From Pectobacterium colocasium (GTDB taxonomy: Bacteria > Pseudomonadota > Gammaproteobacteria > Enterobacterales > Enterobacteriaceae): a DNA stretch of 64,000 nucleotides. The notes beneath the pieces were generated by a model. That model worked only from the letters and a program-made list of their open reading frames with translations. It searched no databases and had not been told where the DNA came from. The stretch covers positions 1,798,001 through 1,862,000 of the forward strand of contig NZ_CP084032.1 of the NCBI RefSeq assembly GCF_020181655.1, given 5' to 3'. A program made the position numbers and the translations under genes. This document shows, piece after piece, positions 19,646 through 60,027 of the stretch; within the stretch, counting starts at the first letter, position 1, and every line of letters starts with the position of its first letter.

Positions 19646-19991
19646 GGGAAGCACTCCACATATTATCAGTAAGTAAGTGCTGGCGAAGCTCTGAGATCTG
19701 ACGCCTCACTGCAAAGAGTTCCGTTTGTGAGAGTGGGCTGTCATTACCTTTGTTGTCCAGATGAACGACAAGCCTGTTTAACTTCTGCGAAATCTCACCA
19801 AGGGTTTTCCATGCTTCGAGATTAATCGATGGAATAACCGAGGGGAGGTTATGCAGAAACGCCATCCGCAGCCATTCACCTTTGCGATGACTGCCACGCC
19901 TTTCATTCAGAAGCGACAACTCTTCATTATTTAATCTGACACTGACGCAATGGCTGCGAAGGATATTATTAAAAGTATTATTTTCGATCAT
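19614..19991 (-). CDS. MobC-like relaxosome accessory protein
   Basis: 125 residues. The N-terminal CVSVRLNNEELSLLNERR is a ribbon-helix-helix start, followed by a C-terminal helical region (EISQKLNRLVVHLDNK) typical of MobC/NikA-like proteins that bind oriT and help the relaxase melt it. Strong AAGGAG ribosome site. It is encoded immediately upstream of and overlapping the relaxase; the candidate oriT lies directly upstream. Confidence 0.75.
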   Translation of the reverse strand: MIENNTFNNILRSHCVSVRLNNEELSLLNERRGSHRKGEWLRMAFLHNLPSVIPSINLEAWKTLGEISQKLNRLVVHLDNKGNDSPLSQTELFAVRRQISELRQHLLTDNMWSASHEGNAKNPQG

Positions 19992-24310: not shown

Positions 24311-24763
24311 GTGAACGATGAAGTCGAAGAGCTCTTGGTTGCAGCAATAGACTTGGCAGCGAAATACAAAAAACTTACAGGTAAGCCGCTCGGAATAACT
24401 GGTGAAGTAGCAGAGTTTTATGCCGCTAAGCTATTAGGTTTGAAGCTAATGGAAGCACGTAGTGCTGGCTATGACGCTATTGGCTCTGAGGCTCGTAAAA
24501 TCCAAATCAAAGGCCGTTCTCTTGCTGATAGTTCAAAACCGGGGCAAAGGGTGGGAGCTATCAGGTTAGAGCATGAGTGGGATTCTGTGATTTTGGTATT
24601 GATGGATGATGTATTCACTGTCAAAGAGATGTGGGAAGCCTACCGCCCTGAAGTCACATACGCATTACTCGCACCTGGTTCTAAATCTCGTAATGAACGA
24701 GGCTCGTTATCTGTCAGTAAATTTAAGCAGATTGGCCGGAAGGTTTGGTCAGGATATTTTTAG
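24311..24763 (+). CDS. DUF6998-like protein with a PD-(D/E)xK-like core
   Basis: 150 residues from GTG (AGGA upstream). GEVAEFYAAKLL (E32, E35) forms the first helix, GYDAIG gives D55, and KIQIKGR gives Q65-x-K67, the layout of Mrr/endonuclease-like folds in which Glu is replaced by Gln. After this come LEHEWDSVILVLMDD and a C-terminal KVWSGYF. I associate this with DUF6998. Partner of the RHH protein upstream. DNA-binding or nicking activity is inferred. Confidence 0.55.
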   Translation: MNDEVEELLVAAIDLAAKYKKLTGKPLGITGEVAEFYAAKLLGLKLMEARSAGYDAIGSEARKIQIKGRSLADSSKPGQRVGAIRLEHEWDSVILVLMDDVFTVKEMWEAYRPEVTYALLAPGSKSRNERGSLSVSKFKQIGRKVWSGYF

Positions 24764-25071: not shown

Positions 25072-25590
25072 CTATTGAATTTTACGTAATGGAAATTTTT
25101 TCCTAGGCCTACTGAGCCATTTTGACCACGGTATATCTCTACCTGGATATGCAGGGTCTTTTATTTTCCAGTAGCTATCAATCCATTCCCGAATAAATTT
25201 TTCGACACTCAAAGAGAGTTGTGTATCGACAATTGTTATATTAAACCAGTAATAAATAGCAACATCACTGCCTTCAAATACTGAAGGGAAAATATACACA
25301 CATCCGAAGCATGTAAGTTCATCAGGATCTAATATTATATAGGAAAAACCAATTCTATTCTTAAAATCTTCATAATCCTCTTCTATATAATTCAAGTTGT
25401 CCTCAGCACTATTGATGTCTTCCGGCCAGCTATCGGAAAAAATATCACTCAATATTGATTTACTTTTCATCACTGCATCATAATCTAGGTCGGAATATTC
25501 CGGAGTTAGGGGGCGGAGAATAAAACCATTACCTTTAACAATCAAGGGGACATCAAAATCATCAGGAACTATTTTATTATATATAATCAT
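25072..25590 (-). CDS. GNAT-like acetyltransferase, last gene of the polyamine operon
   Basis: 172 residues from the ATG at 25590, with GAGA upstream; an upstream frame extension would overlap the preceding gene. FILRPLTPEYSD is the usual GNAT opening strand and helix. Strand pairs FSYIILDPDELTCFGCVYIFP and DVAIYYWFN follow (given as regions near 95-130), then a C-terminal helix with Trp residues. It could acetylate an amine of the product for self-protection or tailoring. The assignment rests on fold pattern only. Confidence 0.5.
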   Translation of the reverse strand: MIIYNKIVPDDFDVPLIVKGNGFILRPLTPEYSDLDYDAVMKSKSILSDIFSDSWPEDINSAEDNLNYIEEDYEDFKNRIGFSYIILDPDELTCFGCVYIFPSVFEGSDVAIYYWFNITIVDTQLSLSVEKFIREWIDSYWKIKDPAYPGRDIPWSKWLSRPRKKFPLRKIQ

Positions 25591-25594
25591 GATT

Positions 25595-25840
25595 TTATCT
25601 CTTTCTTTTGAATTTAAGGCCATGATAATCATGGTTTTCTATATTTGTTAAAGTAGGGCGTTGAGGTTGAGAATAAGAGTGGAAAGCTAAAAGAAAACAA
25701 TTTTTACAGATATCTAGACTGTAATCTATATTTCCCTCTTTATGTTGGAATGTGAATATACCTGATGAGTTATCCCCATCTGTATTGATTTTCTGCATCT
25801 TTCCGCATTTATCACATTTACAGACACTTATAATCATCAC
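25595..25840 (-). CDS. Small zinc-ribbon protein in the polyamine operon
   Basis: 81 residues with CKCDKCGK near the N-terminus and CKNC near residue 46, a four-Cys zinc site, and a basic C-terminal tail. Gap of 15 bases to the ATP-grasp gene upstream and 4 bases to the acetyltransferase gene. Role unknown; could be a carrier, chaperone or regulator for the pathway. Confidence 0.5.
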   Translation of the reverse strand: MMIISVCKCDKCGKMQKINTDGDNSSGIFTFQHKEGNIDYSLDICKNCFLLAFHSYSQPQRPTLTNIENHDYHGLKFKRKR

Positions 25841-25855
25841 GAATTCTCCATAACC

Positions 25856-27142
25856 TTAAAATGAGGAAAGACCTGATAAACCACATGCTGCGCCTTGATG
25901 GCCATTTATGACACCAGGTTCATTAATCCCAATTGCCGCTCTTGTTAAATTCCCGATCATTTTTCCACGTAGAGTAATAAAACCATGCACAATTGATGAG
26001 TTACCTTCTTTTATGATTCCCTGTGCATTGATGGACTGCATATAAGATGAATTACCAATAATTCTTTCTTGCACTACCCATAAAGAATTACTTGAGAGAG
26101 CATCGTGCAGCGCCTTTATCCATTCATCACTATCACATAGCCAACTACAGATAATATCTGTTCCACCATAACCATCAGCAGGTTTTAGAATAAAATTAAG
26201 AGCATAAAATGATTCTATATTCGTTTTTGTTAGAATATCTCCCATTGGGAAAATATTTTCTATCTCTTTAGCCTGTTCATTGGGGAGTGTGGCAATAGCA
26301 TGTTTGATGATCCATGGTATAAATGCTTTATTTGAAAAGATCATTTCCCTAAACCCAAGCAGAGAAATAATTCTTTTTTCATACAACGCTTCTAGAAAAA
26401 GACTGTATCTTGATTTACTTTCAGATAACTCATTTAGAGTGAACATTGGAATAAAATAAGTCACTTCATGACCTTTAAATAGAATATTATTTTCGGTTAT
26501 ATGAAAATCCTCAATAGTTCCTGGTATATATATGTATGAACTATTTTTATTCATGTTCATGGCAAAACTATCTAAATAAAAACTATACTTTTCATACCCC
26601 TCTGATGTTTCAACTACAGGGATAATAACCAAATTATCAGCTATGATATCATGTATATGATCTGACAAAAATTGAAATGAGTTATCTAATGGAGCAATAT
26701 TAATACCATTGCTACTATGGGCATAAAAGTCTGTGCGGATATCGTTAATTGGGAAACTATTTAGTCCACCTAGGCAGAATCCAGTATTAATCTCAATAAT
26801 TTTCCACTGCTCACCAATAAATATAGCATCCCAACGCATAGGCATAGGTATTGCTTGATTATCAAGAGCGATAAAAGGATATATCCATTCGGGGATTCCT
26901 AATTCTTTCATCAGTAAGTCAGGATTATGATTATAAGAATCCCATAGTGATTCCATCAATTTCTCTATTGTAAATAAAGATATTTCAAGGTTTTTTAACT
27001 GATTTTTTTTGTATTCGATAGATGTTAATAACCATTCCCATGATGGATCTATTATGCCATGCTCTATAGCCTGCAACCTGTATTCATTCGCGTATGAAAG
27101 ATTTTCAATTCTGTTGATCAAATAGTGATTATTATTTGTCAT
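25856..27142 (-). CDS. ATP-grasp-like ligase 2 of the polyamine operon
   Basis: 428 residues. RWDAIFIGEQWKIIEINTG (about 104-122) resembles the N-terminal part of ATP-grasp peptide ligases that place the metal-binding Glu and Asn early. NFILKPADGYGGTDI (about 315-330) is the nucleotide-binding loop, and WVVQERIIGNS (about 362) is the strand after it. This order fits circularly arranged ATP-grasp enzymes such as glutathionylspermidine synthetase-like proteins. Likely joins a carboxylate (amino acid or acyl chain) to an amine. It overlaps the desaturase gene by 11 bases. Confidence 0.6.
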   Translation of the reverse strand: MTNNNHYLINRIENLSYANEYRLQAIEHGIIDPSWEWLLTSIEYKKNQLKNLEISLFTIEKLMESLWDSYNHNPDLLMKELGIPEWIYPFIALDNQAIPMPMRWDAIFIGEQWKIIEINTGFCLGGLNSFPINDIRTDFYAHSSNGINIAPLDNSFQFLSDHIHDIIADNLVIIPVVETSEGYEKYSFYLDSFAMNMNKNSSYIYIPGTIEDFHITENNILFKGHEVTYFIPMFTLNELSESKSRYSLFLEALYEKRIISLLGFREMIFSNKAFIPWIIKHAIATLPNEQAKEIENIFPMGDILTKTNIESFYALNFILKPADGYGGTDIICSWLCDSDEWIKALHDALSSNSLWVVQERIIGNSSYMQSINAQGIIKEGNSSIVHGFITLRGKMIGNLTRAAIGINEPGVINGHQGAACGLSGLSSF

Positions 27143-28025
27143 TGAACCACCCTTTTAATTGCTGAAAAGCATAATGCTCTTTACTTTTATACTCATTATT
27201 TTCCATCATAATCATATGTGCTTTTTTATGATTCTCAACACTAACCCAAGGTAATAGGTGATGCACCAAATGGTATCCATCAAATCTTGGCATTAAAAGA
27301 GCGCTAAGAATTCGATTTTTAATGATGAAATTTCTCGATTTATCTACAGGTGTATCATTATTTAGTAATCCGCCGTGGTCGAGTACGTCAGTGAGATGTT
27401 TCTGCACCTGGTAGAAATAGCAATACGGTAGAATAAATAGGAAAAAAAACCATAGGGGAAAATAAAAACAAAGTAAAATTAGTATTGTTATATATGTGCC
27501 ACGTAGAGTATTTGCCCAGAGTGGAGCATCTTTGTCGTATAAAACGAAGAAGAATGTATCTCTAATTTGCAACAACATCAGTGCTTGGCTAATGTGCTTA
27601 ATTACTCGTTTTTGTGTCATTTTTTTATGTAGTCCATATTTTCTTATACTATAAAAATCCATATCTCTTTGCATGTCACCTAAATATTTATGGTGTGAAA
27701 GGTGCTCTTTTCTTACTAATTTGAATTTAGAAAACTCAGCCACCGCGAATATCTCACCAAAAAATTCATTGAATCTTCTAGAATGACAGTAGCTGAAATG
27801 AATGCATTCATGAGACATGTTGTTAATAGCTCTGAAGCGGGTTCCTATATAAAAAGAGACAAACGGGAAAAGAACATAAAAAAAGGCATTTATAGTGGTC
27901 AGCCAACAGGTTAATAAAATAACAACCCAAGGGATTAGGATATTATTAAATGCGACAATTGAGGCCGATAGTAATGATTTTTTTCTATTCTCATTCTTTA
28001 TTTTTTCAATCAAAAAATTGTCCAT
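27132..28025 (-). CDS. Membrane fatty-acid desaturase/hydroxylase family protein
   Basis: 297 residues with the three His boxes of di-iron membrane desaturases: HECIH at 72-76, HLSHH at 108-112, and HLVHH near 250. Hydrophobic segments lie at about 22-48, 49-66, 180-200 and 202-220. The reaction could be desaturation or hydroxylation of an acyl chain or of the polyamine product; family membership cannot decide. Within the operon it follows the permeases with a six-base gap. Confidence 0.75.
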   Translation of the reverse strand: MDNFLIEKIKNENRKKSLLSASIVAFNNILIPWVVILLTCWLTTINAFFYVLFPFVSFYIGTRFRAINNMSHECIHFSYCHSRRFNEFFGEIFAVAEFSKFKLVRKEHLSHHKYLGDMQRDMDFYSIRKYGLHKKMTQKRVIKHISQALMLLQIRDTFFFVLYDKDAPLWANTLRGTYITILILLCFYFPLWFFFLFILPYCYFYQVQKHLTDVLDHGGLLNNDTPVDKSRNFIIKNRILSALLMPRFDGYHLVHHLLPWVSVENHKKAHMIMMENNEYKSKEHYAFQQLKGWFNDK

Positions 28026-28031
28026 AGTAAT

Positions 28032-28802
28032 TTAACCCCCTAATCCGTTGAACTTGGTTATTGTTCCTCTGTATGTGACATAGGTTAATATAATAAAAAA
28101 CAAAGTACTAAATAATAAATTTTCAATCATCCATTCATTTTTTTCGAGAAGTAGTGATATAGGAAGTGAAGCAGAAAATGCCATGGGTAATATAAATAAA
28201 AGCCATTTGGCTATCGCTGAAGGATAAAGTGAAATAGGAATAAATGATAATTCATAAATCATTTCATGAAAATATTCGACTGGCATTTTTCTGTTTGTAA
28301 TAAAAGTCATGAAATTAAAAATCATGAAAAAACATATATTTATGATAATTATACAGCATAGGGATATTGTAAACGAGAACCAATCCATCTCATTATATGA
28401 TTTATTTGGAAAGTCAACAAAAAAATAAGCACACACGCAGAGAACAATAAAGTTAATTATGTTTAATGGTTTGCACCATCCAAATAACATAATGAGCCAT
28501 ATAGAAATCGGTTTTGTTAGATATACTTCAATTTTTCCATCTGCTACCTTGTCAAAAAAAATCTCAATAGAATTCGTAAAAATACTTAACAACATTCCAA
28601 GTAGGACAAAAACAACAAATATCAAATGGATTTCTTCTCTACTGTAATCTCCCAAGCCATTTGAGAAGGAAGATACTTGATCAATAAATATGAATTGGAT
28701 CAAATAATAACATAGTGACAATATAAATTCGCCTGCTAGATTTTTTCCATAGACACACTGTCTTCTTATATTCATTGTAATATAATAAGAAATGGTTTTC
28801 AT
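28032..28802 (-). CDS. ABC-2 type permease 2
   Basis: 256 residues from the ATG at 28802 (GGGGGG upstream). Six hydrophobic segments with a central polar stretch KVADGKIEVYLTKPISIWL matching the same place in permease 1 (EGELEVYLTKPLNYIA). This motif is typical of the DUF990/ABC2_membrane_6 permeases that work as heterodimers with one ATPase. It should form the exporter with the two genes upstream. Confidence 0.75.
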   Translation of the reverse strand: MKTISYYITMNIRRQCVYGKNLAGEFILSLCYYLIQFIFIDQVSSFSNGLGDYSREEIHLIFVVFVLLGMLLSIFTNSIEIFFDKVADGKIEVYLTKPISIWLIMLFGWCKPLNIINFIVLCVCAYFFVDFPNKSYNEMDWFSFTISLCCIIIINICFFMIFNFMTFITNRKMPVEYFHEMIYELSFIPISLYPSAIAKWLLFILPMAFSASLPISLLLEKNEWMIENLLFSTLFFIILTYVTYRGTITKFNGLGG

Positions 28803-28803
28803 A

Positions 28804-29637
28804 TCACCCCCCAGCTCCATTATATATTTTAAGCCCTTTATTCCAGAGAATAAAAATTATCACTAAAAATGCAGTAATATAAAAAAAACTACCTAGTATA
28901 AAATGGTGAAATACAGTTTCATTATAATTTGTGAGAAATTCAGCTGGCGCGGATATTGTAAAACGATAAGGATTAAATTGCATTAATGGGACAAGCCAGT
29001 CTGGCCAAAAAGTAGGTGGTAAAAGGACTCCACCAAGGAGAGCTGAGCTAAGTATACTGAAAGACAGTAATATATTGTATTCAATTACCCAGAAACTGAG
29101 TAAGGATAGACTGAAAGATAGCAAAAAACAGAGTAACTGTGATATGACAACAATGAATACAATCATCATAAAATAAGTTATTAAGTTAAAAAACATGAGG
29201 TTATTTTCTGATGATGGGCTGTTTTTAAAAAAACAAACGAGTAATAACGGTGTGGTATATAAAATGCTTTCACCGAAAAAAGTGAAAAGTTTCTGAGCTA
29301 TATAGTTTAATGGCTTTGTGAGATAGACTTCTAGTTCGCCCTCTCTTATTTTCTCAGAGAGAGAGCGAATTAAATCATAACCATTATTTAATCGTGAAAA
29401 TATCAAAGCGAAAATATAATAATAAATCATATCATTAAAACTAAAACCATTTATATGGTCTCTCTCTTCAGAGAAAATTGCTCTCCATAAAATGAGTTGA
29501 ATAATGAATGGCGATAGTGTTCCCATGACAAAGTCAGTAAAAAACATTGCTCTGTCATTCACAATCGTTAGTAGACCATTTTTTGCATAATAATACATAA
29601 CAAGTAATCGATTAGTTAAATTCTTTAAACTTAACAC
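28804..29637 (-). CDS. ABC-2 type permease 1
   Basis: 277 residues from GTG at 29637 (GAGGAG upstream), inside the end of the ATPase gene. Six hydrophobic segments and the conserved REGELEVYLTKPL region before segment 3. Paralogue of the next gene. Exporters of this type move drugs, bacteriocins or small metabolites; the natural cargo is the product of this operon by context. Confidence 0.75.
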   Translation of the reverse strand: MLSLKNLTNRLLVMYYYAKNGLLTIVNDRAMFFTDFVMGTLSPFIIQLILWRAIFSEERDHINGFSFNDMIYYYIFALIFSRLNNGYDLIRSLSEKIREGELEVYLTKPLNYIAQKLFTFFGESILYTTPLLLVCFFKNSPSSENNLMFFNLITYFMMIVFIVVISQLLCFLLSFSLSLLSFWVIEYNILLSFSILSSALLGGVLLPPTFWPDWLVPLMQFNPYRFTISAPAEFLTNYNETVFHHFILGSFFYITAFLVIIFILWNKGLKIYNGAGG

Positions 29638-30631
29638 GGAGCATCTCCTCAAGGGAAGGTGTGGAAACTGAGAAAACGCAGTTTAGTTCTGTCGTCAGCG
29701 TTTGTATAAAACGTGGATAGTTATCTCGATGTAATGAAATTTCTAGTGATAAATCTTCATTGTTCAACTGTTTGCTTTCCAGTTTAATTGATTCTTTTAT
29801 CGCAATTTCATTGACTCGTTGTAGGGCAACCGATTGTTCCATTGAATTTTCATGAAAAAGAGTAATTCTGACCAAGGATGAGATCATATTTTTAAGAGAG
29901 TTGATATCTCCATGGTATTTTTTTTCTCCTTTATGTAAAAGAATTATATCATCAACATAACCATCAATATCCCCCATGTCATGGCTGGTTATTACATACC
30001 CAATACCGTTTTCTTGTTTTAAACGTTTAAGTAATTCTCTTATCTCATGTTTCGATGTAATATCTAGTCCGATCGTCGGTTCATCCAAAAAAAGAATTTT
30101 CGGTCTAAAGGATAAATTAAAAGCAAGCTCACTTTTTACCCGTTCGCCTAAGCTTAATAATCGTACCGGCTTATCCATGAGATGAGTGATATTTAATAAA
30201 GTAGCAATCTCTTTTATATCGTGATTAAATGTTATTTTATCGAGATCATATAATGGCTGAACCATCTCCAGGCTGTAACGCAACGGCAAATCCCACCATA
30301 GGCAATTCTTATGTCCAAATACAACACCTAATTCTTTAAACAGATTTTTTCTCTTTTTATAAGGATCTATACCCAGCACTTTAACGCAGCCCTTGTCAGC
30401 ATACTGGATACCGGAAAGAATCTTAATCAGAGTCGATTTCCCTGCGCCATTAGGGCCAAGTATCGCTAGTGACTTACCTGTATGCAGGTTGAAACTTATA
30501 TCATTGAGAACCTTACTATATGTATAGGTTGGACGAAATAAACCTATTATCCTTTCTTTGAAATTACCTTCATTTAGCTTATTACAATAGCTTTTTGACA
30601 CATTATTGAACTCAATCAAAGGTGATGTCAT
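29612..30631 (-). CDS. ABC transporter ATP-binding protein
   Basis: 339 residues. Walker A GPNGAGKST, signature LLSLGERVKSEL, Walker B KILFLDEPTIGLD and the H-loop TSHD are all intact. The N-terminal extension (about 45 residues before Walker A) and the C-terminal 100 residues follow the pattern of the DrrA/NatA-like exporters paired with DUF990 permeases. GGAGAG precedes the ATG; the gene overlaps both neighbours. Confidence 0.9.
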   Translation of the reverse strand: MTSPLIEFNNVSKSYCNKLNEGNFKERIIGLFRPTYTYSKVLNDISFNLHTGKSLAILGPNGAGKSTLIKILSGIQYADKGCVKVLGIDPYKKRKNLFKELGVVFGHKNCLWWDLPLRYSLEMVQPLYDLDKITFNHDIKEIATLLNITHLMDKPVRLLSLGERVKSELAFNLSFRPKILFLDEPTIGLDITSKHEIRELLKRLKQENGIGYVITSHDMGDIDGYVDDIILLHKGEKKYHGDINSLKNMISSLVRITLFHENSMEQSVALQRVNEIAIKESIKLESKQLNNEDLSLEISLHRDNYPRFIQTLTTELNCVFSVSTPSLEEMLRVKFKEFN

Positions 30632-31865
30632 TCGTCTCTCCTAGAACTAAATTATATCCTGACTTTATATTCATATAGTCTTTTATAACATTGCTCCGGT
30701 CGCCAGAAAATATAAACATACCTAAGCAATCTTTATGGCAGTAAAATTCCCCAGATGCAACATCTCCAATTTTTGGCAAAATATTAATTTTCAATGTCGG
30801 CAACTCTTTTAGATTGGGGGTCTCGACACTTATCACTCTTTTTTCATGATCTGAATGGTGATCTTTTGGATAGACTAAATAGGCATAAGTGCTATTTTTT
30901 GCAAAAATAGTAAGGTCATGAATCAGGCCTAATTGTGCGCCTAAATGTATTAACCGCAGATCTATACCATAAGTATGCATGATAGCGTCGACTACACCTG
31001 CGCCACCTGGCCTGTATGCTATTTCCAATAGTTCAGGCTCTTCATTTGTGCGATAAAAAGCCTCTATATGAAAAACTCCATCAGGAAGATTAAATGCTAT
31101 TTTCAATCTTTCTGTAAAGGGGTGCCAGATCTCAACAACTTGCTTATATGGAACTGATATGCAGCCAAGTTCGTAACCTTGGAGGTAGTTTAAAGGGGTG
31201 CCGTCATAAGCACCAACTGATATAAACTCAATGCGCCCAGCTATGATGACACAGTCAATATGGAAAATATCACTGGAATTGTAAGCCTCAAACATGTGCT
31301 GCGCATCATCCATATCCCGATAATCATCACCAGAATGTTCTTTTAATAAAGGGAGATCAGAAATACTATAGAGCAACTTTATTCCAACAGAACCAGCCAA
31401 AGATCTAGGCTTTATTATCAGAGGGAAGTTTGCCTCGCCGCGTAAAATATCGTCTCTATTGTATTCTTTTGGGGTCGGAATACCATGAAGAGATGCTATT
31501 TTTTTCATCATTTTCTTATCGCGGAATTTTTGAGCAATATAGCACGTCATCCCTTCAAGTTTTAGTTTTTGGCGAACATATGCCGCGATAAAAACTGAAA
31601 ACTCGTCATTAGATATTACTTTAGTTATCTGATGATAAAGACAAATTCGTTCTACTGTCACCGCTATATCAGCATGAAAAGCAAAATTGCGAACAACAAA
31701 ATGTCGGTCGTCCTCTATAACACTTCCAGTTGCCGTAAAATCCTCAATAAGAAAAATGAAATTTTCAGAAGGAATTCCGAAAAAATTTTTTAGCTCAGAG
31801 AGTTTTTGGGGAATATCCAATTCACATGAAACAACTAGTATTTTTTCCATATTGGTATTCAGCAT
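30612..31865 (-). CDS. ATP-grasp ligase 1 of the polyamine operon
   Basis: 417 residues; the start may also be the ATG at 31850, which gives MEKILVVSCELD, a common opening. Typical ATP-grasp features: FPLIIKPRSLAGSVGIKLL (about 147-165) for nucleotide binding, FHIDCVII and VFHIEAFYR strands, and ELLEIAYRPGGAGV (about 282-295) carrying the Mg-binding Glu and Arg. Similar to carboxylate-amine ligases of the BtrJ/HsvC kind. Expected reaction: ATP-driven amide bond formation between an acid and an amine such as a guanidino-polyamine. Confidence 0.75.
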   Translation of the reverse strand: MLNTNMEKILVVSCELDIPQKLSELKNFFGIPSENFIFLIEDFTATGSVIEDDRHFVVRNFAFHADIAVTVERICLYHQITKVISNDEFSVFIAAYVRQKLKLEGMTCYIAQKFRDKKMMKKIASLHGIPTPKEYNRDDILRGEANFPLIIKPRSLAGSVGIKLLYSISDLPLLKEHSGDDYRDMDDAQHMFEAYNSSDIFHIDCVIIAGRIEFISVGAYDGTPLNYLQGYELGCISVPYKQVVEIWHPFTERLKIAFNLPDGVFHIEAFYRTNEEPELLEIAYRPGGAGVVDAIMHTYGIDLRLIHLGAQLGLIHDLTIFAKNSTYAYLVYPKDHHSDHEKRVISVETPNLKELPTLKINILPKIGDVASGEFYCHKDCLGMFIFSGDRSNVIKDYMNIKSGYNLVLGETNDITFD

Positions 31866-33241
31866 TTATTAATAACAGTTCTTCGTTTGTAACTTTTTTC
31901 TGCCGGTATCTTATCCAACAATACAGGAAGGACACTGACATCATGAGAAAAAATCTTACTAATATGAGATTGAAATGCTTTAAATATATTACCATTCTGA
32001 GTGACTGTAGGGATTCGGGGAACATAGAGCACTTCAATTCTATCAGGGGCGAGTTGCACAACACGAAATTCTGCAATATTAGCATCATCCTGACAAAAGA
32101 AACGTTCTACTGCATCTAGAATGCTTCCTGGTGGAATTGTTGTTCCATGCAGAGTCGTGAGTGCTTGATCAGCCCTGCCGTGAAGTTTTTTTAACTGATG
32201 GAAGTGACTTCCACACGTACAAACCCCACCACTGACCTCCATTTCACATAGATCCCCCTGTTCGTAACGAATCATCGGCATCGCTTCATTCCAGAGATCA
32301 GTACCGACAATTTCACCCACTCCATGACTGTCACAATTGATGACTTCTATATGCACATCGTCTTCAACTACATGGTAATGTTTGTCTCGACATTGCATAG
32401 CCATAATGTCAAGTTCTTCAGAAGAATACTCATCTCTTACTGGAACGTGAAAAATACTCTCGTAACGATTACGTTCTTCTTGGGTTGTGGTCTCTGAGTT
32501 GGTTGATACCAGTTCTACACCATGTACATCTAAACGTTCACCAAGGGCAGCTAACTGCTCCAGATAGCTACCAATAGATGATATAATCTGCGGTTTGAGT
32601 TTTTTAATGTGCTCTAGAGCAAAGAACCCAGGACAGTCTTGGCTCAGGGTGAATACCCTATAGTCTCCTAGAATTGAAGTATGCCACCACACGCAATAGT
32701 GAATGTTGTATAGCCAACGATCAGGATCTACGGGGCGGCCAGACATAAACTCAAACATCCTATACTTATGTAAAATATCAAGATTGGCGCGAGATTGAGG
32801 AAGGATGATCTGAACCTGTTTACCAGAAGAACCGGAACTACTCATCCAACGGCATGTAGCTGGATCATATTCATTAGATGGTAAACCCACAGGAAAATTA
32901 TTTATAACATCATCTTTATTAATAGTAGGCAATTTGGCGAAATCGTTAAACGAGCGAATTGCCCCTTTTTCATAACCACAATTCCGGTATTTTTCCCGAT
33001 AGAAAGGTGAGGTGGAAAATGCCCAGTCCACTAAATTACTGAGTCTGTTTAACTTCCATACATCAAGTTCTTCACGATCAAGTGTGAGCCTTGATCTAAA
33101 ATCAGTGTACTTTTTATCAAGCAGTTCACGCATACCCTTTTGCCGTTCAATAGTCTCAACCCCTAGAGGTTCTACATTCGAGTGGTAAATGATAGCGTCA
33201 ATATTGCAGTGATGTTTCCTTACGTCATAAAGATTAGACAT
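31859..33241 (-). CDS. PaaK-like adenylate-forming enzyme
   Basis: 460 residues. P-loop SSSGSSGKQV (about 134-143), EYSSEE (about 272-277), RYEQGDL and the C-terminal Lys region KIPAEKSYKRR. This is the phenylacetate-CoA ligase/adenylate-forming superfamily. It likely activates an aromatic or other acid as the acyl-adenylate or CoA thioester for attachment to the polyamine. Overlaps the amidinotransferase gene by eight bases and the ATP-grasp gene by seven, so expression is coupled. Confidence 0.75.
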   Translation of the reverse strand: MSNLYDVRKHHCNIDAIIYHSNVEPLGVETIERQKGMRELLDKKYTDFRSRLTLDREELDVWKLNRLSNLVDWAFSTSPFYREKYRNCGYEKGAIRSFNDFAKLPTINKDDVINNFPVGLPSNEYDPATCRWMSSSGSSGKQVQIILPQSRANLDILHKYRMFEFMSGRPVDPDRWLYNIHYCVWWHTSILGDYRVFTLSQDCPGFFALEHIKKLKPQIISSIGSYLEQLAALGERLDVHGVELVSTNSETTTQEERNRYESIFHVPVRDEYSSEELDIMAMQCRDKHYHVVEDDVHIEVINCDSHGVGEIVGTDLWNEAMPMIRYEQGDLCEMEVSGGVCTCGSHFHQLKKLHGRADQALTTLHGTTIPPGSILDAVERFFCQDDANIAEFRVVQLAPDRIEVLYVPRIPTVTQNGNIFKAFQSHISKIFSHDVSVLPVLLDKIPAEKSYKRRTVINKC

Positions 33242-34334
33242 AGGATTTCAAACTCCCGCTACGTTTAACATCAAGGGTTGCACAGTGAAATGACCCACCA
33301 AAGGTTTGGAAATGCTTAAAAGGACATAAAATCGTTTTAAATCCCCATTTATTGAATGCTTTTTTCAACAATTCTTCATCTTTTTCAACAACAACGGTTT
33401 TATCATCCAACATCAATACATTAGTATGTATCCATTTCGACGTCATAAACAGTGGATGAGCATCATCAAGCATTGACGGTGGTGGTGTAAGAATTTCCCA
33501 GTCTTTGAAAATATCAGGTATTTTAGAAACCCATGCCTTATTTACTAATACTCTTCCTGGAGCCAAGGGAAGTATGGTTGTATCAATATGCATAGGAGAT
33601 GCGTCATCGAATTCATAAATATGAATTCGATATTCATCGCCCAGAGCTCTACGCAGCCACTCAACTCCTTTTTGGTTGGTGACATGACTACGTTGCCCAA
33701 TAATGTCTTTTCCCATTTTCATAAAGTCTGCTGCATCAAAAACCGGCTCTGATTCATTAATAATTGAATCAAATCTTTCTTCTTGTTCACAGTCATGTCC
33801 AATTTTCCATAAACTGTCTTTTAGCATGGGTTTTGGTGCCGCCAACCATTCCGCCCCCTGGGAAAAATAGTCATTCAGTATTTCCCTGAATGCAAATGTT
33901 TCAAAGTAACGGCTGCGCCAAGCCATAGGAACTTCAATGATTTTTTTCCCAATAGCGAAAAGACAATCGCGAGGCATCGCCGAATAAAATCCTCCACCTG
34001 TGCTGAAATGTGGTGTGATAATAGTCTTATGATGATTTACCTCTTCAGGCCTACGAACGCGAATACCTTCACTTTGCAGAATATCAGCTAACTGGTTTAC
34101 TTCTTTTTTAGCGAGCGTGATTAACTCTTTTGGAAAACGACCACCGGCATTATTTTTAAAGAAGCTTTTTGATTTCTTTGGTATTACAGCATCAAGCCCT
34201 GGATCCCATTCAGGAACACGAATATCATCAATATCGCCAACAATTATTTCTTCAAGAGGATCCCATTCTGTATAAACTTCAACAGGACAAGTTTTTTGAG
34301 TGGAAAACCACGGTTCTTCTTTTTGAAAATCCAT
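33234..34334 (-). CDS. Amidinotransferase, HsvA/AGAT-like
   Basis: 366 residues. The catalytic triad of the arginine:glycine amidinotransferase family is visible: Asp200/Asp203 (VFDAADF), His249 (SPMHID) and Cys351 (GGSFHCATLD). The N-terminal VEVYTEWDPLEEIIVGD is also typical. Family members move the amidino group from arginine to an amine. HsvA of Erwinia and Pseudomonas, part of the phevamine pathway, is reported to prefer polyamines. With SpeD- and SpeE-like genes immediately upstream, a guanidino-polyamine is the expected product. Confidence 0.85.
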   Translation of the reverse strand: MDFQKEEPWFSTQKTCPVEVYTEWDPLEEIIVGDIDDIRVPEWDPGLDAVIPKKSKSFFKNNAGGRFPKELITLAKKEVNQLADILQSEGIRVRRPEEVNHHKTIITPHFSTGGGFYSAMPRDCLFAIGKKIIEVPMAWRSRYFETFAFREILNDYFSQGAEWLAAPKPMLKDSLWKIGHDCEQEERFDSIINESEPVFDAADFMKMGKDIIGQRSHVTNQKGVEWLRRALGDEYRIHIYEFDDASPMHIDTTILPLAPGRVLVNKAWVSKIPDIFKDWEILTPPPSMLDDAHPLFMTSKWIHTNVLMLDDKTVVVEKDEELLKKAFNKWGFKTILCPFKHFQTFGGSFHCATLDVKRSGSLKSYV

Positions 34335-34350
34335 TTTTTCTTCTCTAGAA

Positions 34351-35208
34351 TTAAATGTTATTACGTAATGAAGTAGGAATTATAGTCGATTTTATAATTG
34401 ATTGCCTGTCGATAAATTTTGGTTTATAAGGAAGGTTTTCAAGTTTATTAGTCATCCTTTCGACAATATCTTCACATTCAAAATTTGCTCCGACCAGCCA
34501 AACCCAATTTTGTTCTTCCATTTCAAAGAATACTGTGCTTGTAAAACTATCATGAAATCTCTTTATTGCATTATTTAACGTGCTATTTCTCCAGTATGTG
34601 GTACATCCTGCCTGTGAGATAAATACCCCTTTAGGAGTGAGGAGCTTTTTGATCTTATTATTAAATTCAGCACTATATAGACGATTTTGTTGCGCACAGT
34701 CTTCTTGTTCGTCAGGCAAGTCCAGTACTATAATGTCAAACATGTCATTTCTGGCTATTGCATCATCAATATATTTATAACCATCACCTATGATGATGTG
34801 GATTGGACCTTTGTTTTCTTTTGCAGTATTAACTTCCTCTAAGGTATAACCATAAGGCAGATATTTTGCGCAAGCATCAACACAGTCAGCATCAATATCT
34901 ACATGTGTCACTTTTTTTGCACCTAATTCAACAGCAAGCTTACTGATGACTCCTTCACTGGAGCCTATGATTAGCACATTATTGATTTCACCACAAAATA
35001 AAGCAGCAGGGATAATCTGACCTTCATGATATATAAGTTGTGACTCTTCGACACTTTGTCGTTCGTTATTGCAGAATAGGCTTATCCCCTGAGCTGTTTT
35101 GGCTATAATCATATCTTGAAAAGGTGTTTTTTTCTGATAAATTATATTCTCTAATTCCCATATGCGGCTTACCCCTTTACCAATTGGCTCAATAATTTTA
35201 TTTTGCAT
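34351..35208 (-). CDS. Spermidine synthase-like aminopropyltransferase
   Basis: 285 residues. Rossmann motifs in order: VLIIGSSEGVISKLAVE (standard GGGDG changed to GSSEG), VTHVDIDADCVDACAKYLP, IIIGDGYKYI and FDIIVLDLPDE. These are the decarboxylated-AdoMet and amine binding elements of the SpeE family. The altered glycine loop and DLPDE in place of DSTDP suggest a specialised acceptor rather than housekeeping spermidine synthase. AGGAG ribosome site; the gene overlaps the SpeD-like gene by 11 bases. Confidence 0.75.
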   Translation of the reverse strand: MQNKIIEPIGKGVSRIWELENIIYQKKTPFQDMIIAKTAQGISLFCNNERQSVEESQLIYHEGQIIPAALFCGEINNVLIIGSSEGVISKLAVELGAKKVTHVDIDADCVDACAKYLPYGYTLEEVNTAKENKGPIHIIIGDGYKYIDDAIARNDMFDIIVLDLPDEQEDCAQQNRLYSAEFNNKIKKLLTPKGVFISQAGCTTYWRNSTLNNAIKRFHDSFTSTVFFEMEEQNWVWLVGANFECEDIVERMTNKLENLPYKPKFIDRQSIIKSTIIPTSLRNNI

Positions 35209-35587
35209 TTTTTATTTCTCCTCTAATGACGCTTGTTGATTGAATTTTTGTTGGATTTAATGCCATTTCTATTTCCTTGATAGCTAAGCTTGGATTGCAG
35301 TCACCACAAGTAAAGATATCAATAAAAGCAGCCGAAAAATTTGGGTAGGTGTGAATTGATGCATGTGATTCAGATAATAAAAATAATGCGGTTACTCCTT
35401 CTGGATCGAATTTATGTGATGTTTCTTGAAGAATAGTTGCGCCCGTAGCTTCAACAGCAGAACGCATTACTTTTATAAGAGTATATTGATCATTGAGGAG
35501 GGCATTATCTACACCGTAGAATTCTGCAAAAACATGCTTTCCGCTGAAAGAATAATCGGAGCAATCCTTTTTACCCGATGACACCAT
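35198..35587 (-). CDS. Short S-adenosylmethionine decarboxylase (Bacillus/archaeal type)
   Basis: 129 residues. LSESHASIHTYP holds the pyruvoyl cleavage site Glu73-Ser74, His79 and, downstream, the proton-donor Cys94 (FTCGDC). This is the short class 1B SpeD of Bacillus subtilis and archaea (about 125 residues). The housekeeping enterobacterial SpeD is about 264 residues, so this copy was almost surely brought in with the operon. It supplies decarboxylated AdoMet to the adjacent aminopropyltransferase. First gene of the operon. Confidence 0.85.
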   Translation of the reverse strand: MVSSGKKDCSDYSFSGKHVFAEFYGVDNALLNDQYTLIKVMRSAVEATGATILQETSHKFDPEGVTALFLLSESHASIHTYPNFSAAFIDIFTCGDCNPSLAIKEIEMALNPTKIQSTSVIRGEIKNAK

Positions 35588-36325: not shown

Positions 36326-37640
36326 GACCTTGTACATGATTCTGTGTAAATGCCATTTCTCAGAAGTGACCGTCCAGGCGGTCACCGAACTCGATAATAA
36401 AGCGGCTCATCGCCAGCCGCCAGTTTTGGATCGGCATCGTCCATTTTTTTGATGCCGACTGTATTGCCAGCCACACCACTTTCCTTACTGAGTCATCTGT
36501 CGGGAACACCTTGCGTTTCTTTATGGCATGCCGGATGACGCTGTTCAGTGATTCAATGGCATTGGTCGTGTAAATCACCTTACGGATGTCACTCGGGTAC
36601 GCGAAGAATGTTGACAGATTCGCCCAGTTTGCACGCCAGCTCCGGCTGATTTGCGGGTAGCGCTCATCCCAGACCCTGGCGAATGTTTCCAGCTCCTGCA
36701 ACGCCGCTTCTTCCGTCGCGGCCCCATAAACCGCCTTCAGGTCGCGAGTGACGGCCTTATAGTCCTTCCATGAGACGAAGCGCAGGCTGTTGCGCACCAT
36801 ATGGACTATACACAACTGGATGCGGGTTTGCGGATAGACCGCATTGATAGCGTCAGGGAAGCCTTTCAGACCGTCAACGCAGGCGATGAGAATGTCGTTC
36901 AGACCTCTGTTTTTCAGCTCCGTCAGCACATTCAGCCAGAACTTCGCCCCTTCATTTTCCGCCAGCCACATACCCAGTAGTTCTTTCTGACCATCGATAT
37001 TGATGCCCAAGGCCAGGAACACGGATTTGTTGATGACACGACTATCCTGACGGACCTTAAGGACAATACAGTCAAGATAAACAATGGGATAAAGGCTATC
37101 CAACGGCCGATTCTGCCATTCAACAACCTGCTCCATCACTGCGTCCGTGACCTTTGAAATCAGGGCCGGCGACACATCTGAGTCATACAGTTCCTTAAAC
37201 GTCGCGACGATCTCTCGGGTAGTCATGCCTTTGGCGTATAACGACAGGATTTGGTTATCCATGCTGGTTATCCGGGTCTGATTTTTCTTCACCAGTTGAG
37301 GTTCGAATGTGGCATCACGATCTCGCGGAGTACGCAGTTCGAGCGGGCCATCGCCAGTAATGACCGTTTTTGTGGAATAACCGTTACGTGCGTTAAGACC
37401 CGCTTTGGGCTGGTTTTTCTCGTACCCGAGATGGTGGGACATTTCAGCATTAAGGGCGGCTTCAACACTGATTTTTTTCAGCAGGCGATCGAACTGGCTG
37501 AGATCATCAGGTGTTTTAAGATTTTTGGCCAGTTCGTTAGCCAGTGCCTGTAATTGTTTTTCGTCCATAAATTAACCTGCTTTTGATGTTGGATTGAACA
37601 TATCAAAATCAGGCAATTACACAAATTTATGTACAGGCTC
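36326..37640 (-). mobile_element. IS256-family insertion sequence (IS285-like)
   Basis: 1315 bp bounded by imperfect inverted repeats of about 29 bp (sharing CTGTACAT or CTTGTACAT, TGTGTAA and TGCC). The 8-bp direct repeat TTTAAAAT lies at 36318-36325 and 37641-37648, the duplication size expected of IS256. One transposase gene fills it. The insertion is right at the 3' end of the integrase gene, whose stop starts at 37649. Confidence 0.9.
36360..37568 (-). CDS. IS256-family transposase
   Basis: 402 residues, the usual length. Catalytic Asp in IVYLDCIVLKV, Asp in ACVDGLKGFPDA and Glu in TTNAIESLN form the DDE triad; CIVHMVRNS is the family C/DxxH region. Strong similarity in style to IS285/IS1414-type transposases of enterobacteria. 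Intact, so possibly still mobile. Confidence 0.9.
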   Translation of the reverse strand: MDEKQLQALANELAKNLKTPDDLSQFDRLLKKISVEAALNAEMSHHLGYEKNQPKAGLNARNGYSTKTVITGDGPLELRTPRDRDATFEPQLVKKNQTRITSMDNQILSLYAKGMTTREIVATFKELYDSDVSPALISKVTDAVMEQVVEWQNRPLDSLYPIVYLDCIVLKVRQDSRVINKSVFLALGINIDGQKELLGMWLAENEGAKFWLNVLTELKNRGLNDILIACVDGLKGFPDAINAVYPQTRIQLCIVHMVRNSLRFVSWKDYKAVTRDLKAVYGAATEEAALQELETFARVWDERYPQISRSWRANWANLSTFFAYPSDIRKVIYTTNAIESLNSVIRHAIKKRKVFPTDDSVRKVVWLAIQSASKKWTMPIQNWRLAMSRFIIEFGDRLDGHF

Positions 37641-37648
37641 TTTAAAAT

Positions 37649-38923
37649 CTATCCTTTTTGTGCAAACTCAAACGGGCTAACTATTCCATTGCGGTTCGCA
37701 TCCAGAAAATCAGCCCACCATTGCAGCATCAGTTTACGCTGGTCAAGATGGCTAACTTTATGGGTATAAGCAGATCTAACGGTGTTTTTTTCTTTATGGC
37801 TCATTTGAAGCTCAACCGTGTCTTCCGACCATAATCCCGATTCCGTCAATGCACTACAGGCTAACGTGCGAAAGCCATGCCCACACAGATCCGTTTTGGT
37901 GTCATATCCCATACGCTGAAGGGCTTTATTGATAGTTCCTGAACTCATCGCAGAATCACTGTCGTAAAACCCGGTGAAAATAAACCCGTCACCCGCTTTT
38001 TCACCATAAGTGATCTTTTTAACCTCTTTCAAGATCTCAACCGCCTGCCTGCACAGTGGGACAAAATGCTTTCTCTTCATTTTGGCACCACGACCAGAGT
38101 GTTTTACCCCTTTAACTTCCTTTCGTTGTTCAGGGATAACCCAGAGAGATTTTTTGAAGTCGATTTCACTCCATCGGGCAAAGCGTAACTCACTTGACCT
38201 GACAAAAACCAATAATGTGAGCCTGATCGCTAATTCTGTTAAAAGACCTCGACCACGGTAGTTGTCGAGTTTTTGTAAGAGATCGGGAATTTCATAGATT
38301 TCGATAGAAGGGCGGTGCGCTGTCTCACCTTTTTCGATAGTGCCTTGCAAATCATAAGCAGGGTTATAACTGATGATCTTCTGCTGGACGGCGTATCGCA
38401 TGATAGAGGTTGTATACTGCTTCAGGCGCATGGCGATGTCGAGATAGCCTAACTTCTCAACTTTTTTGAGGGGGATGAGTAAATCGCTGGTATCAAGCTC
38501 TGATACATCACGATTTCCCAGATATGGCAGAAGGTAGTTTTCAATGCGTCTCCAGACCTTAACTTTGTAGTCTTCTGACCACTTGGTTTTGGTCTCAGCC
38601 CATGCACGAGCCATTACAGCAAAGGATCGGGACTCATCGTGTGTTCCTTGTCGCTCCCGGCCTGATTTTTTTCTGGCTCCTGGATCAATCCCATTAGCAA
38701 TCAGCTTACGCGCTTCATCACGACGCTCCCTTGCGTCAGTCAAAGAAATAGCAGGGTAAACCCCCAACGCTAACAGTTTTTGCTTCTGTGCAAAGCGGTA
38801 GGAAAGCCGCCAGTATTTAGATCCGTTCGGGTGGACAAGCAGGTGCATACCAAAACCATCAGTAAGCTTGTATTCTTTCTCAAGAGGTTTAGCTTTTTTT
38901 ACTTTGGTGTCAGTAAGTGACAT
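37649..38923 (-). CDS. int: P4-family tyrosine integrase at tRNA-Asn
   Basis: 424 residues. The N-terminal SLTDTKVKKAKPLEKEYKLTD is the P4-type arm-binding start. Catalytic residues: FVRSSELRFARW (Arg), a Lys in RKHFVPL, HGFRT (HxxR), MSHKE (His) and RSAYTHK (Tyr). It lies 180 bases from the tRNA-Asn 3' end and transcribes away from it, the standard arrangement for islands using a tRNA 3' end as attachment site. It defines the island extending leftwards. The IS256 copy touches its stop codon but does not alter the protein. Confidence 0.9.
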   Translation of the reverse strand: MSLTDTKVKKAKPLEKEYKLTDGFGMHLLVHPNGSKYWRLSYRFAQKQKLLALGVYPAISLTDARERRDEARKLIANGIDPGARKKSGRERQGTHDESRSFAVMARAWAETKTKWSEDYKVKVWRRIENYLLPYLGNRDVSELDTSDLLIPLKKVEKLGYLDIAMRLKQYTTSIMRYAVQQKIISYNPAYDLQGTIEKGETAHRPSIEIYEIPDLLQKLDNYRGRGLLTELAIRLTLLVFVRSSELRFARWSEIDFKKSLWVIPEQRKEVKGVKHSGRGAKMKRKHFVPLCRQAVEILKEVKKITYGEKAGDGFIFTGFYDSDSAMSSGTINKALQRMGYDTKTDLCGHGFRTLACSALTESGLWSEDTVELQMSHKEKNTVRSAYTHKVSHLDQRKLMLQWWADFLDANRNGIVSPFEFAQKG

Positions 38924-39102: not shown

Positions 39103-39178
39103 TGGCTCCTCTGACTGGACTCGAACCAGTGACATACGGATTAACAGTCCGCCGTTCTACCGACTGAACTACAGAGGA
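39103..39178 (-). tRNA. tRNA-Asn (GTT), island attachment site
   Basis: Reading the minus strand, TCCTCTGTAGTTCAGTCGG opens the acceptor and D arms, GACTGTTAATCC is the anticodon loop (GUU), and the T arm GGTTCGAGTCC precedes CAGAGGAGCCA. 76 bases including encoded CCA, close to identical to the E. coli asn tRNAs as I remember them. The 3' end faces the integrase, so the 3' part is the likely attL/attR core. I saw no second copy of that core elsewhere in the window, so the far end of the island is outside. Confidence 0.95.
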
Positions 39179-39288: not shown

Positions 39289-40086
39289 TTAGTAGATGGA
39301 TGGTGCACGGTAGTTGACGCTGCTTTGCCAGTTTTTTAGGCGGGCGAGCGGATCTTGTCGATAGAATTTTTGAAAGCAGCGGTACATGTCGGGGAAACGA
39401 TCGTCGAGAAGTTCGGGGGCGCTGAAGAAGTATTCCGACAGCACCGCAAAGCACTCTGCCGGATCGTGGGCGGCATAGGGATCCATACTGGTGGCGTCTT
39501 CACCGACCAGATCAATCTCTTCCTGCAAAGCATCCATCGCGCCACGCAGATGTTGTTCCCAGACAGCAATATCGCGCAGGGGAATTAGGGGAACGCCAGT
39601 TGCTTCGCCGCTGCTGCGAATATCCAGCTTGTGTGCGACTTCATGAATGATGAGGTTGAAACCGGAGAGATCGAAAGAGTCTTGCACTTCTTGCCAGTTG
39701 ATGACAATCGGCCCCTGATCCCAGCTTTGCCCGGACTGTACCATTTTCCCCGTATGCACGAGTCCGATGTCGTCCTGCCACTCTTCTTCGACAATAAACG
39801 GGCCGGGATAAACCAGAACTTCGTGGAAACCATCCAGCGCATCCATTCCCAGCGACAAGACCGGCAGGGAAAACAACAGGGCGATGCGTTGCTGCATGAT
39901 TTCCGTTAACACTAGCTCCTGCAACGGAATCAGGCGTTTTTGCTTCAGAAACTGATCGGCAAGTGCGACCAACTGCTGAAGTTCTTCATCGCTTAAGGGG
40001 GCGAGAAGTGGGATGGAGACCGCAGCTTGCCAGTGTTCAAGTGTCTGCACCTGAGGTTGAGTGTTTTTCCATGGCCATTTAATCAT
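39289..40086 (-). CDS. mtfA: MtfA, Mlc titration factor / peptidase
   Basis: 265 residues, full length. [10 protein letters not shown] holds the zinc motif H148-E149-xx-H152, and downstream Glu residues ([16 protein letters not shown], about 205-220) supply the third ligand. MtfA binds and inactivates the Mlc repressor, raising ptsG expression, and has aminopeptidase activity. It is normal core chromosome; in E. coli too it lies next to an asn tRNA. Higher GC and ordinary codon use contrast with the AT-rich islands on both sides. Confidence 0.95.
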
Positions 40087-58981: not shown

Positions 58982-59002
58982 CCAAATATTCCTCAATGCC
59001 AA

Positions 59003-59995: not shown

Positions 59996-60001
59996 GTGTT
60001 A

Positions 60002-60027
60002 AAGAAAGGGCCTATTGGCCCTTTCTT
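60002..60027. terminator. Terminator after the DUF3892 gene
   Basis: A perfect 11-bp stem (AAGAAAGGGCC and complement) with a TATT loop; the A/T ends make it work in either direction. Confidence 0.8.

What the first reader, a model, noticed from the sequence alone, without database searches (positions are those of the whole stretch)
25072..35587. Twelve-gene operon predicted to make and export a guanidino-polyamine conjugate
Twelve overlapping minus-strand genes combine AdoMet decarboxylase, aminopropyltransferase, amidinotransferase (triad Asp200/203, His249, Cys351), a PaaK-like activating enzyme, two ATP-grasp ligases, a desaturase, a GNAT and a three-part exporter. The phevamine genes hsvABC also use an amidinotransferase and ligase(s) on a spermidine-type amine, but I know of no described cluster with dedicated SpeD and SpeE, an adenylating enzyme, a desaturase and this exporter. 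Predicted logic: make an aminopropylated amine, amidinate it, acylate one or two amines, modify, export. On an island of a possible plant pathogen it could be a virulence factor or antibiotic.
Basis: partly seen in the sequence, partly recalled or inferred. Interest (0 to 1): 0.88.

Follow-up and report, generated by a model that had tools for sequence, protein, structure and literature searches.

The report
Expanded phevamine-like guanidino-polyamine gene cluster

Summary
The twelve genes are really there and form a conserved unit. An Erwinia genome carries 12 of 12 in the same order at another site; Pseudomonas silvicola carries genes 1-9 in order. The amidinotransferase is HsvA-like (phevamine pathway; 73-76% identity) but in a separate sister clade (support 100). 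ATP-grasp 1 is the unduplicated counterpart of HsvB and HsvC. ATP-grasp 2 has the glutathione/glutathionylspermidine-synthetase fold and keeps residues needed in Cp1B. SpeD and SpeE are extra, divergent copies beside a housekeeping pair. The 'desaturase' is closest to the arginine hydroxylase GntB, far below its cut-off. The Erwinia genome also carries hsvABC elsewhere, so the products probably differ. Part was seen before: PMC2897811 (2010) noted a second hsv-like cluster in E. pyrifoliae. Product, substrates and role are inferred. Verdict: a real, mostly undescribed variant of a known kind.

The parts
35198..35587 (-). Gene 1, SpeD2: S-adenosylmethionine decarboxylase, B. subtilis-type (129 aa)
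   Evidence: PF02675 E 2e-33; TIGR03330 110.6 bits over cut-off 75.65; 75% in Erwinia, 46% in P. silvicola
34351..35208 (-). Gene 2, SpeE2: divergent aminopropyltransferase (285 aa)
   Evidence: PF01564 E 1e-17; 21% to the genome's own housekeeping SpeE, but Y60-H61-E62, D106, D142-G143, D163 and D166 shared with it
33234..34334 (-). Gene 3, AMT: HsvA-type polyamine amidinotransferase (366 aa)
   Evidence: PDB 5wpi HsvA E 6e-193; D200, D203, H249, C351 present; sister of the HsvA clade with support 100
31859..33241 (-). Gene 4: PaaK-like adenylate-forming enzyme (460 aa)
   Evidence: PDB 4r1l E 3e-19; NCBIfam PaaK-type models, all below their cut-offs; homologues
30612..31865 (-). Gene 5, ATP-grasp 1: HsvB/HsvC-type amino-acid ligase (417 aa)
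   Evidence: About 40-45% to both HsvB and HsvC; PDB 4wd3 L-amino acid ligase E 6e-10; tree
29612..30631 (-). Gene 6: ABC exporter ATPase (339 aa)
   Evidence: PF00005 E 1e-24; DrrA model best but below cut-off
28804..29652 (-). Gene 7: ABC-2 permease (282 aa)
   Evidence: PF06182 E 1e-20
28032..28820 (-). Gene 8: ABC-2 permease (262 aa)
   Evidence: PF06182 E 1e-21
27132..28025 (-). Gene 9: membrane hydroxylase/desaturase, GntB-like (297 aa)
   Evidence: PF00487 E 2e-25; best NCBIfam model GntB 91.1 bits, cut-off 380; three histidine clusters kept in three genomes (that they bind a di-iron centre is recalled)
25856..27142 (-). Gene 10, ATP-grasp 2: ligase of the glutathione/glutathionylspermidine-synthetase fold (428 aa)
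25595..25837 (-). Gene 11: small CxxC...CxxC protein (80 aa from the second start), possible zinc ribbon
   Evidence: 43% in Erwinia, with C9, C12, C45 and C48 kept; no family match above cut-off
25072..25590 (-). Gene 12: GNAT-like acyltransferase (172 aa; start revised from 25632)
   Evidence: 67% in Erwinia; that homologue hits PF13302 at E 3.6e-4, below cut-off
37649..38923 (-). Tyrosine integrase of the island, next to tRNA-Asn 39103-39178 (context, not part of the pathway)
   Evidence: PF13356, PF22022 and PF00589; tRNA; full-length integrases of 93.6-97.2% identity at the same tRNA in 4 other genomes of the genus
36360..37568 (-). IS256-family transposase between the operon and the integrase (context)
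   Evidence: PF00872 E 3e-116; 84-89% DNA matches in the 10 plasmid rows listed, several named IS256

Best explanation
The operon makes and exports an acylated, oxidised guanidino-polyamine, related to phevamine A but different from it. Proposed order (inferred): SpeD2 makes decarboxylated AdoMet; SpeE2 puts an aminopropyl group on an amine (putrescine, agmatine or spermidine); AMT moves the amidino group of arginine to one end; the PaaK-like enzyme activates one acid, ATP-grasp 1 joins an amino acid, and in the Enterobacterales version ATP-grasp 2 (glutathionylspermidine-synthetase-like fold) makes a further amide on the polyamine; the GntB-like membrane enzyme hydroxylates or desaturates a carbon; genes 6-8 export the product; GNAT-like gene 12 caps or detoxifies it. 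Shown here: gene content, homologies, conserved order, conserved residues, the fold of gene 10, and kinship to hsvABC. Inferred: every substrate, the order of steps, and the role.
For: Conserved order 12 of 12 in Erwinia and 9 of 12 in P. silvicola. HsvA homology with support 100 for the sister relation; HsvA is called a polyamine amidinotransferase in the title of Shanker et al. 2017, seen only in a reference list. ATP-grasp 1 branches outside the HsvB-HsvC pair. ATP-grasp 2 has the fold and the R, D, E, N set found necessary in Cp1B. The genome already has speE-speD, so the pair here is extra. SpeE2 shares acidic residues with housekeeping SpeE. Two permeases and an ATPase lie in the operon. 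A genome with both this cluster and hsvABC argues for different products.
Confidence: 0.7

Rival explanations
1. It makes phevamine A itself or a trivial analogue by another gene set, with SpeD2/SpeE2 only raising the spermidine supply.
For: AMT is 73-76% identical to HsvA and ATP-grasp 1 is HsvB/C-like. Phevamine A consists of Phe, Val and a modified spermidine (passage).
Against: One HsvB/C-type ligase, not two; further activating, ligating and modifying enzymes that the 11 hsv loci read do not show; both clusters together in one genome.
Confidence: 0.12
2. It makes a polyamine conjugate for the cell's own use (stress protection, a cell-surface or metal-binding metabolite), not an effector on hosts or competitors.
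For: No hrp-box-like site upstream of gene 1 with the one pattern tried; relatives also in Photorhabdus, which is not a plant pathogen (recalled).
Against: An ABC transporter of exporter type is in the operon, and the unit is sparse and lower in GC than its surroundings in the three genomes read (0.35, 0.44, 0.45 against 0.52-0.67), as is common for accessory metabolites aimed at hosts or competitors (inference).
Confidence: 0.15
3. The island copy is a decaying remnant, no longer functional.
For: An IS256 element ends 0.8 kb upstream of gene 1; no promoter was sought beyond the hrp box.
Against: All 12 frames are open, with the AMT residues and the residues conserved across genomes intact in the proteins compared.
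Confidence: 0.05

Closest known systems
hsvABC, phevamine A operon (Erwinia, Pseudomonas syringae group, Pantoea stewartii)
   Same: HsvA-type amidinotransferase; HsvB/C-type ATP-grasp ligase; same logic of guanidine on a polyamine plus amino-acid amides (product from passages)
   Different: In the 11 hsv loci read, no match to genes 1, 2, 4 or 6-12; two tandem HsvB/C ligases instead of one; beside type III secretion genes in the two Pantoea plasmids
Second hsv-like cluster of E. pyrifoliae, PMC2897811 (2010; Kube et al., author name recalled)
   Same: Very probably the same cluster: hsvA-like (86%) and hsvC-like (66%) genes, with a 'putative capsular exopolysaccharide synthesis' gene (CapK/PaaK-like by the names) in place of hsvB
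   Different: The passages read name only these genes; the words spermidine, polyamine, capK and phenylacetate do not occur in the main text
Glutathionylspermidine synthetase / YgiC / YjfC / Cp1B (E-64 pathway) ligases, and glutathione synthetases
   Same: Fold and R-D-E-N residue set of gene 10
   Different: About 10-13% identity over the structural alignment; substrates unknown
GntB of guanitoxin biosynthesis (L-arginine hydroxylase)
   Same: Best-scoring named model for gene 9; acts on a guanidine compound (model description)
   Different: 91 bits against a cut-off of 380; other guanitoxin genes were not sought
Mangotoxin cluster mboABCDEF
   Same: ATP-grasp ligases with an amidinotransferase-like enzyme (passages)
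   Different: MboE acts as a deiminase; the oxidase is a heme-oxygenase-like di-iron protein; no polyamine genes in the passages seen

Membership tests
hsv (phevamine A) operon | Amidinotransferase of the HsvA clade | tested here: not met
   Sister clade with support 100; the HsvA clade itself has 99 without it
hsv (phevamine A) operon | Two tandem HsvB and HsvC ATP-grasp ligases | tested here: not met
   One such ligase only, branching outside the HsvB-HsvC pair
hsv (phevamine A) operon | HrpL control / link to Hrp T3SS | tested here: inconclusive
   One hrp-box pattern with fixed spacing: none upstream of gene 1; 27 matches in the window against 23 by chance. T3SS genes elsewhere in the genome were not searched
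hsv (phevamine A) operon | Product is phevamine A | not testable with these tools
   No metabolite data
Polyamine amidinotransferase | Catalytic Asp, His, Cys and close identity to HsvA | tested here: met
   D200/D203, H249, C351; 5wpi E 6e-193. Activity itself not testable
Spermidine synthase (SpeE) | Equivalog score of known SpeE | tested here: not met
   NF002010 101 bits against 260; TIGR00417 84.6 against 249.55; acidic residues shared with housekeeping SpeE are kept
S-adenosylmethionine decarboxylase, B. subtilis type | TIGR03330 equivalog cut-off | tested here: met
   110.6 bits, cut-off 75.65
Glutathione/glutathionylspermidine-synthetase-fold ligases | Fold of the synthetase domain | tested here: met
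Glutathione/glutathionylspermidine-synthetase-fold ligases | R-x-D ... E-x-N residues needed in Cp1B | tested here: met
   R103, D105, E117, N119 invariant in 8 of 8; Cp1B substitutions described in PMC12568646 (passage). The residue correspondence is my reading of the motif, not a structural superposition
GntB arginine hydroxylase | NF041365 equivalog cut-off | tested here: not met
   91.1 bits against 380; P. silvicola homologue 99.2
Phenylacetate-CoA ligase PaaK | TIGR02155 equivalog cut-off | tested here: not met
   72.7 bits against 646.3
GNAT acetyltransferase (gene 12) | Pfam GNAT cut-off | tested here: inconclusive
   Erwinia homologue 21.7 bits against 25.4; window protein no match; model too poor

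The most novel reading that the evidence does not exclude
This is the richer, older form of a widespread family of non-NRPS guanidino-polyamine pathways (SpeD-SpeE-amidinotransferase-PaaK-ATP-grasp-exporter-hydroxylase). Phevamine A arose inside it by losing the polyamine, PaaK, exporter and hydroxylase genes and doubling the ligase. The Enterobacterales form adds a glutathionylspermidine-synthetase-type ligase and makes a new class of multiply acylated, hydroxylated guanidino-polyamine on a non-standard aminopropylated backbone, used against plant or insect hosts.
Probability: 0.35. Interest if true: 0.82.

Novelty: new variant of a known kind. Interest (0 to 1): 0.62.

Why it matters
Phevamine A is a small-molecule suppressor of plant immunity made by a short operon; none of the passages I read says where that operon came from. 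This cluster is its closest relative found here with a full supporting pathway, and it gives a testable origin. It also predicts new chemistry (a hydroxylated, multiply acylated guanidino-polyamine) in soft-rot, pear-blight and insect-associated bacteria, from a gene set in which I saw no NRPS or PKS gene and which I therefore expect common genome-mining rules to miss. Most of the enzymes can be assayed one by one.

Tried and rejected
Considered and rejected: (a) a chance run of unrelated genes, because order is kept in two other genera; (b) plain spermidine supply as the whole story, because the genome has its own speE-speD; (c) an HrpL-run operon: no hrp box upstream of gene 1 with the one pattern tried, which is weak evidence; (d) spread of this cluster on plasmids: gene 10 and gene 2 have no match among 72,556 plasmid records, and gene 4 none above 60% identity (78 records); gene 3 does reach 74% on 3 Pantoea plasmids, of which the two opened carry hsvABC; (e) gene 12 as a known GNAT family: unproved.

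Led nowhere: an AlphaFold model of gene 12 (pLDDT 43.1), so no fold search was run on it; a profile search of PDB sequences with gene 10 (no relevant hit); copies of the tRNA end inside the window (only the tRNA itself), so the left edge of the island is unknown; comparison of upstream DNA with Erwinia (only a 22-base local match); an HlyD search of the genome (24 hits, uninformative). Papers asked for by id as the phevamine A and HsvA originals are not held, so their details are from citing papers or recalled. Screens with few or no full clusters: gene 4 in 394 genomes of the order (own plus 12 others at 24-27% identity), 392 of the family (own plus one partial 33% hit), 369 of the class (own only), 37 of the genus Erwinia (1); gene 3 in 39 relatives other than the own genome (0). 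These draws are samples and may overlap. A first reading of the integrase site saw only 11 of 25 loci because my script did not turn loci of the other strand; one search repeats it on 25 of 25. In one search the outgroup sequences did not form one clade (the root is a trifurcation), and side groups of the tree have supports as low as 40. In the contig-length comparison one pair of equal length (1,649 bases, P0038 and P0201) was dropped as too short for both genes. In some searches I printed only the loci of interest.
Full report
What is there. Twelve minus-strand ORFs run from 35587 down to 25072. With the starts as listed, 8 of 11 junctions overlap and the other 3 have gaps of 16, 6 and 15 bases, so one transcription unit is likely. 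Two starts should probably move: gene 12 to 25590 and gene 11 to 25837, because the Erwinia homologues begin there. GC of the cluster is 0.35, against 0.52 for the neighbouring gene at 39289-40086 (mtfA-like by recall) and 0.50 for the stretch with the genome's own speE-speD.

Family assignments. SpeD2 passes the B. subtilis-type AdoMet decarboxylase cut-off. SpeE2 has the spermine-synthase domain but is far under SpeE equivalog cut-offs and 21% identical to the housekeeping SpeE of the same genome; nevertheless Y60-H61-E62, D106, D142-G143, D163 and D166 are shared with it. That these are amine-, dcAdoMet-binding and catalytic positions is recalled, not from a call. The amidinotransferase matches HsvA (5wpi), then SxtG, L-arginine:glycine amidinotransferase and inosamine-phosphate amidinotransferase, with D200, D203, H249 and C351 in place. 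Gene 4 is PaaK-like without passing any curated cut-off. Gene 5 is an ATP-grasp ligase of the L-amino acid ligase kind. Genes 6-8 are an ABC ATPase and two ABC-2 permeases. Gene 9 is of the fatty-acid-desaturase family; its best named model is GntB (91.1 of 380 bits). GntB is a transmembrane enzyme of guanitoxin biosynthesis according to one passage of PMC10367076. Gene 11 is a small four-cysteine protein. Gene 12 is probably a GNAT.

It is a conserved unit. The neighbouring ORFs there look like ordinary chromosomal genes and I noticed no integrase among them; tRNAs were not searched. The latter three are therefore an Enterobacterales addition or a Pseudomonas loss. In protein searches, 5 of the 7 other gene-10 homologues share an exact contig length with a gene-3 or gene-4 homologue: Pectobacterium brasiliense, Brenneria rubrifaciens, Photorhabdus CRCIA-P01 and two metagenome contigs. 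Equal contig length is indirect evidence.

How rare. Gene 3 was found in 1 of 40 relatives searched, the own genome. Gene 4 at E <= 1e-20: 13 of 394 genomes of the order, the own one and 12 distant ones at 24-27% identity; 2 of 392 of the family, the own one and a partial 33% hit; 1 of 37 of the genus Erwinia. At E <= 1e-50: 1 of 369 of the class, the own one, and 5 of 398 Pseudomonas, of which 1 has the nine-gene core.

Relation to phevamine. Eleven hsv loci were read: eight from genome contigs (L002-L009), two Pantoea plasmids (L025, L026) and the second Erwinia locus (L032). In each the HsvA gene (73-76% to gene 3) is followed by two ATP-grasp genes, each about 40-45% identical to gene 5, and the loci have no match to genes 1, 2, 4 or 6-12; the loci are 6-21 kb long and some end near the operon. 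In Pantoea they sit beside type III secretion genes. Three of the source genomes were searched whole with gene 4: 0 of 3 match. The Erwinia genome G793 has both clusters, which speaks for two products. A tree of 65 amidinotransferases puts the cluster's enzymes as sister of the HsvA clade (support 100; HsvA 99, or 93 with two further metagenome proteins), and both inside a group with many members linked to a gene-4 homologue. Of the 65, 17 carry my gene-4 label: 14 from pairs of exactly equal contig length between the 120 listed hits and the 120, one of these (P. silvicola) checked by DNA, plus the DNA-read copies of P. silvicola, G793 and the window; 2 more are linked to gene 10 the same way. 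No label does not mean no link. Nodes between HsvA and the deeper linked groups have support 86-99; side groups go down to 40. A tree of gene 5 with HsvB and HsvC, rooted on P. silvicola, joins HsvB and HsvC (98) with gene 5 of the window and of Erwinia outside; the Bartonella and other Pseudomonas sequences fall on the root side. Read together: phevamine genes look like a reduced branch in which one ligase was duplicated and the rest was lost. The alternative, that an hsv-like core gained the other genes more than once in the same order, is less likely but not excluded.

Mechanism. The best account is: dedicated aminopropylation, amidination, two or three amide-forming activations, one C-H oxidation, export. 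The steps from sequence to enzyme class are shown to the degree stated above; substrates, order and product are inference. Gene 10's fold family includes enzymes that join glutathione to spermidine (glutathionylspermidine and trypanothione synthetases; their chemistry is recalled), which fits a polyamine acceptor. Gene 12 may cap the product or protect the producer; its weak PDB neighbour MccE (E 0.48) is not evidence.

Island context. The operon lies next to a tyrosine integrase gene and tRNA-Asn. At this tRNA in 25 of 25 genomes of the genus: a full-length integrase of 93.6% identity or more in 5 (own included), a partial one of 97.6% at a contig end in 1, full-length ones of 68% in 4 and of 44-46% in 8, short pieces in 4, none in 3. 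So the site is an integration hot spot. Four of the five other genomes with the close integrase (G016, G011, G021, G019) were in the gene-3 screen and lack gene 3; G1574 was not screened. The genus is probably Pectobacterium, judged only from the nearest named relatives of genes 4 and 10; this was not tested.

Prior art. PMC2897811 (2010; authors Kube et al. by recall; passages read) reports in E. pyrifoliae a second cluster like the Hrp-associated enzyme region, with hsvA- and hsvC-like genes and a putative capsular exopolysaccharide synthesis gene where hsvB would be. This is very probably the same cluster. Its main text has no 'spermidine', 'polyamine', 'capK' or 'phenylacetate'. PMC2827408 (2010 E. 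pyrifoliae genome paper; passages) mentions hsvABC once, in the Hrp region. PMC5663808 (passages) discusses hsv gene losses. Searches of the held library: phevamine (17 papers, 17 listed); hsvA/amidinotransferase/spermidine (99, 20 listed); HsvA or polyamine amidinotransferase (86, 20 listed); amidinotransferase, ATP-grasp, gene cluster, spermidine (32, 20 listed); guanylspermidine (2); E. pyrifoliae with these enzymes (17, 16 listed); Pectobacterium with amidinotransferase (3); guanidino-polyamine gene clusters (17, 15 listed); hsvABC (4). No description of the full cluster appeared in the listings and passages seen. Most subscription papers are not held, so this is not proof of novelty.

Verdict. 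A real, conserved, mobile biosynthetic cluster; a new variant of the phevamine kind, partly noticed in 2010, with an unexpected evolutionary relation to the phevamine operon. Interest 0.62.

Noticed in passing
L024 (Bartonella kosoyi plasmid pTLV-1), 1279-11318: A PaaK-like gene (33% to gene 4) beside an ATP-grasp gene, an aminotransferase, two oxidoreductases, an enolase-like gene and a MATE exporter: looks like another non-NRPS small-molecule cluster on a mobilizable Bartonella plasmid.
   Followed up: partly
L041, L042, L043, L044: Pseudomonas loci with gene-4 homologues (33-36%) but no match to gene 3: L041 and L042 pair it with matches to the exporter genes 6-8, L043 with weak matches to gene 5 and gene 9, L044 with none of the other genes. 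The PaaK-like family seems to recur in small-molecule clusters.
   Followed up: partly
window 43963-46065: Two minus-strand genes, AAA family ATPase and DUF4435 protein by the names on a Rouxiella plasmid with 90% DNA identity; could be a defence pair.
   Followed up: no
window 57578-62983: MobA/MobL relaxase and a shufflon-type pilin gene on the other side of the tRNA genes: perhaps a second mobilizable element in the same window.
   Followed up: no
window 18263-19991: MobA/VirD2-type relaxase with a small gene upstream, on the operon's side of the tRNA.
   Followed up: no
window 24311-24763: DUF6998 protein (E 9e-11) just beyond the end of the operon, on the other strand.
   Followed up: no
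window 47572-48380: Transposase in two overlapping frames; DNA matches named IS5 family on plasmids.
   Followed up: no
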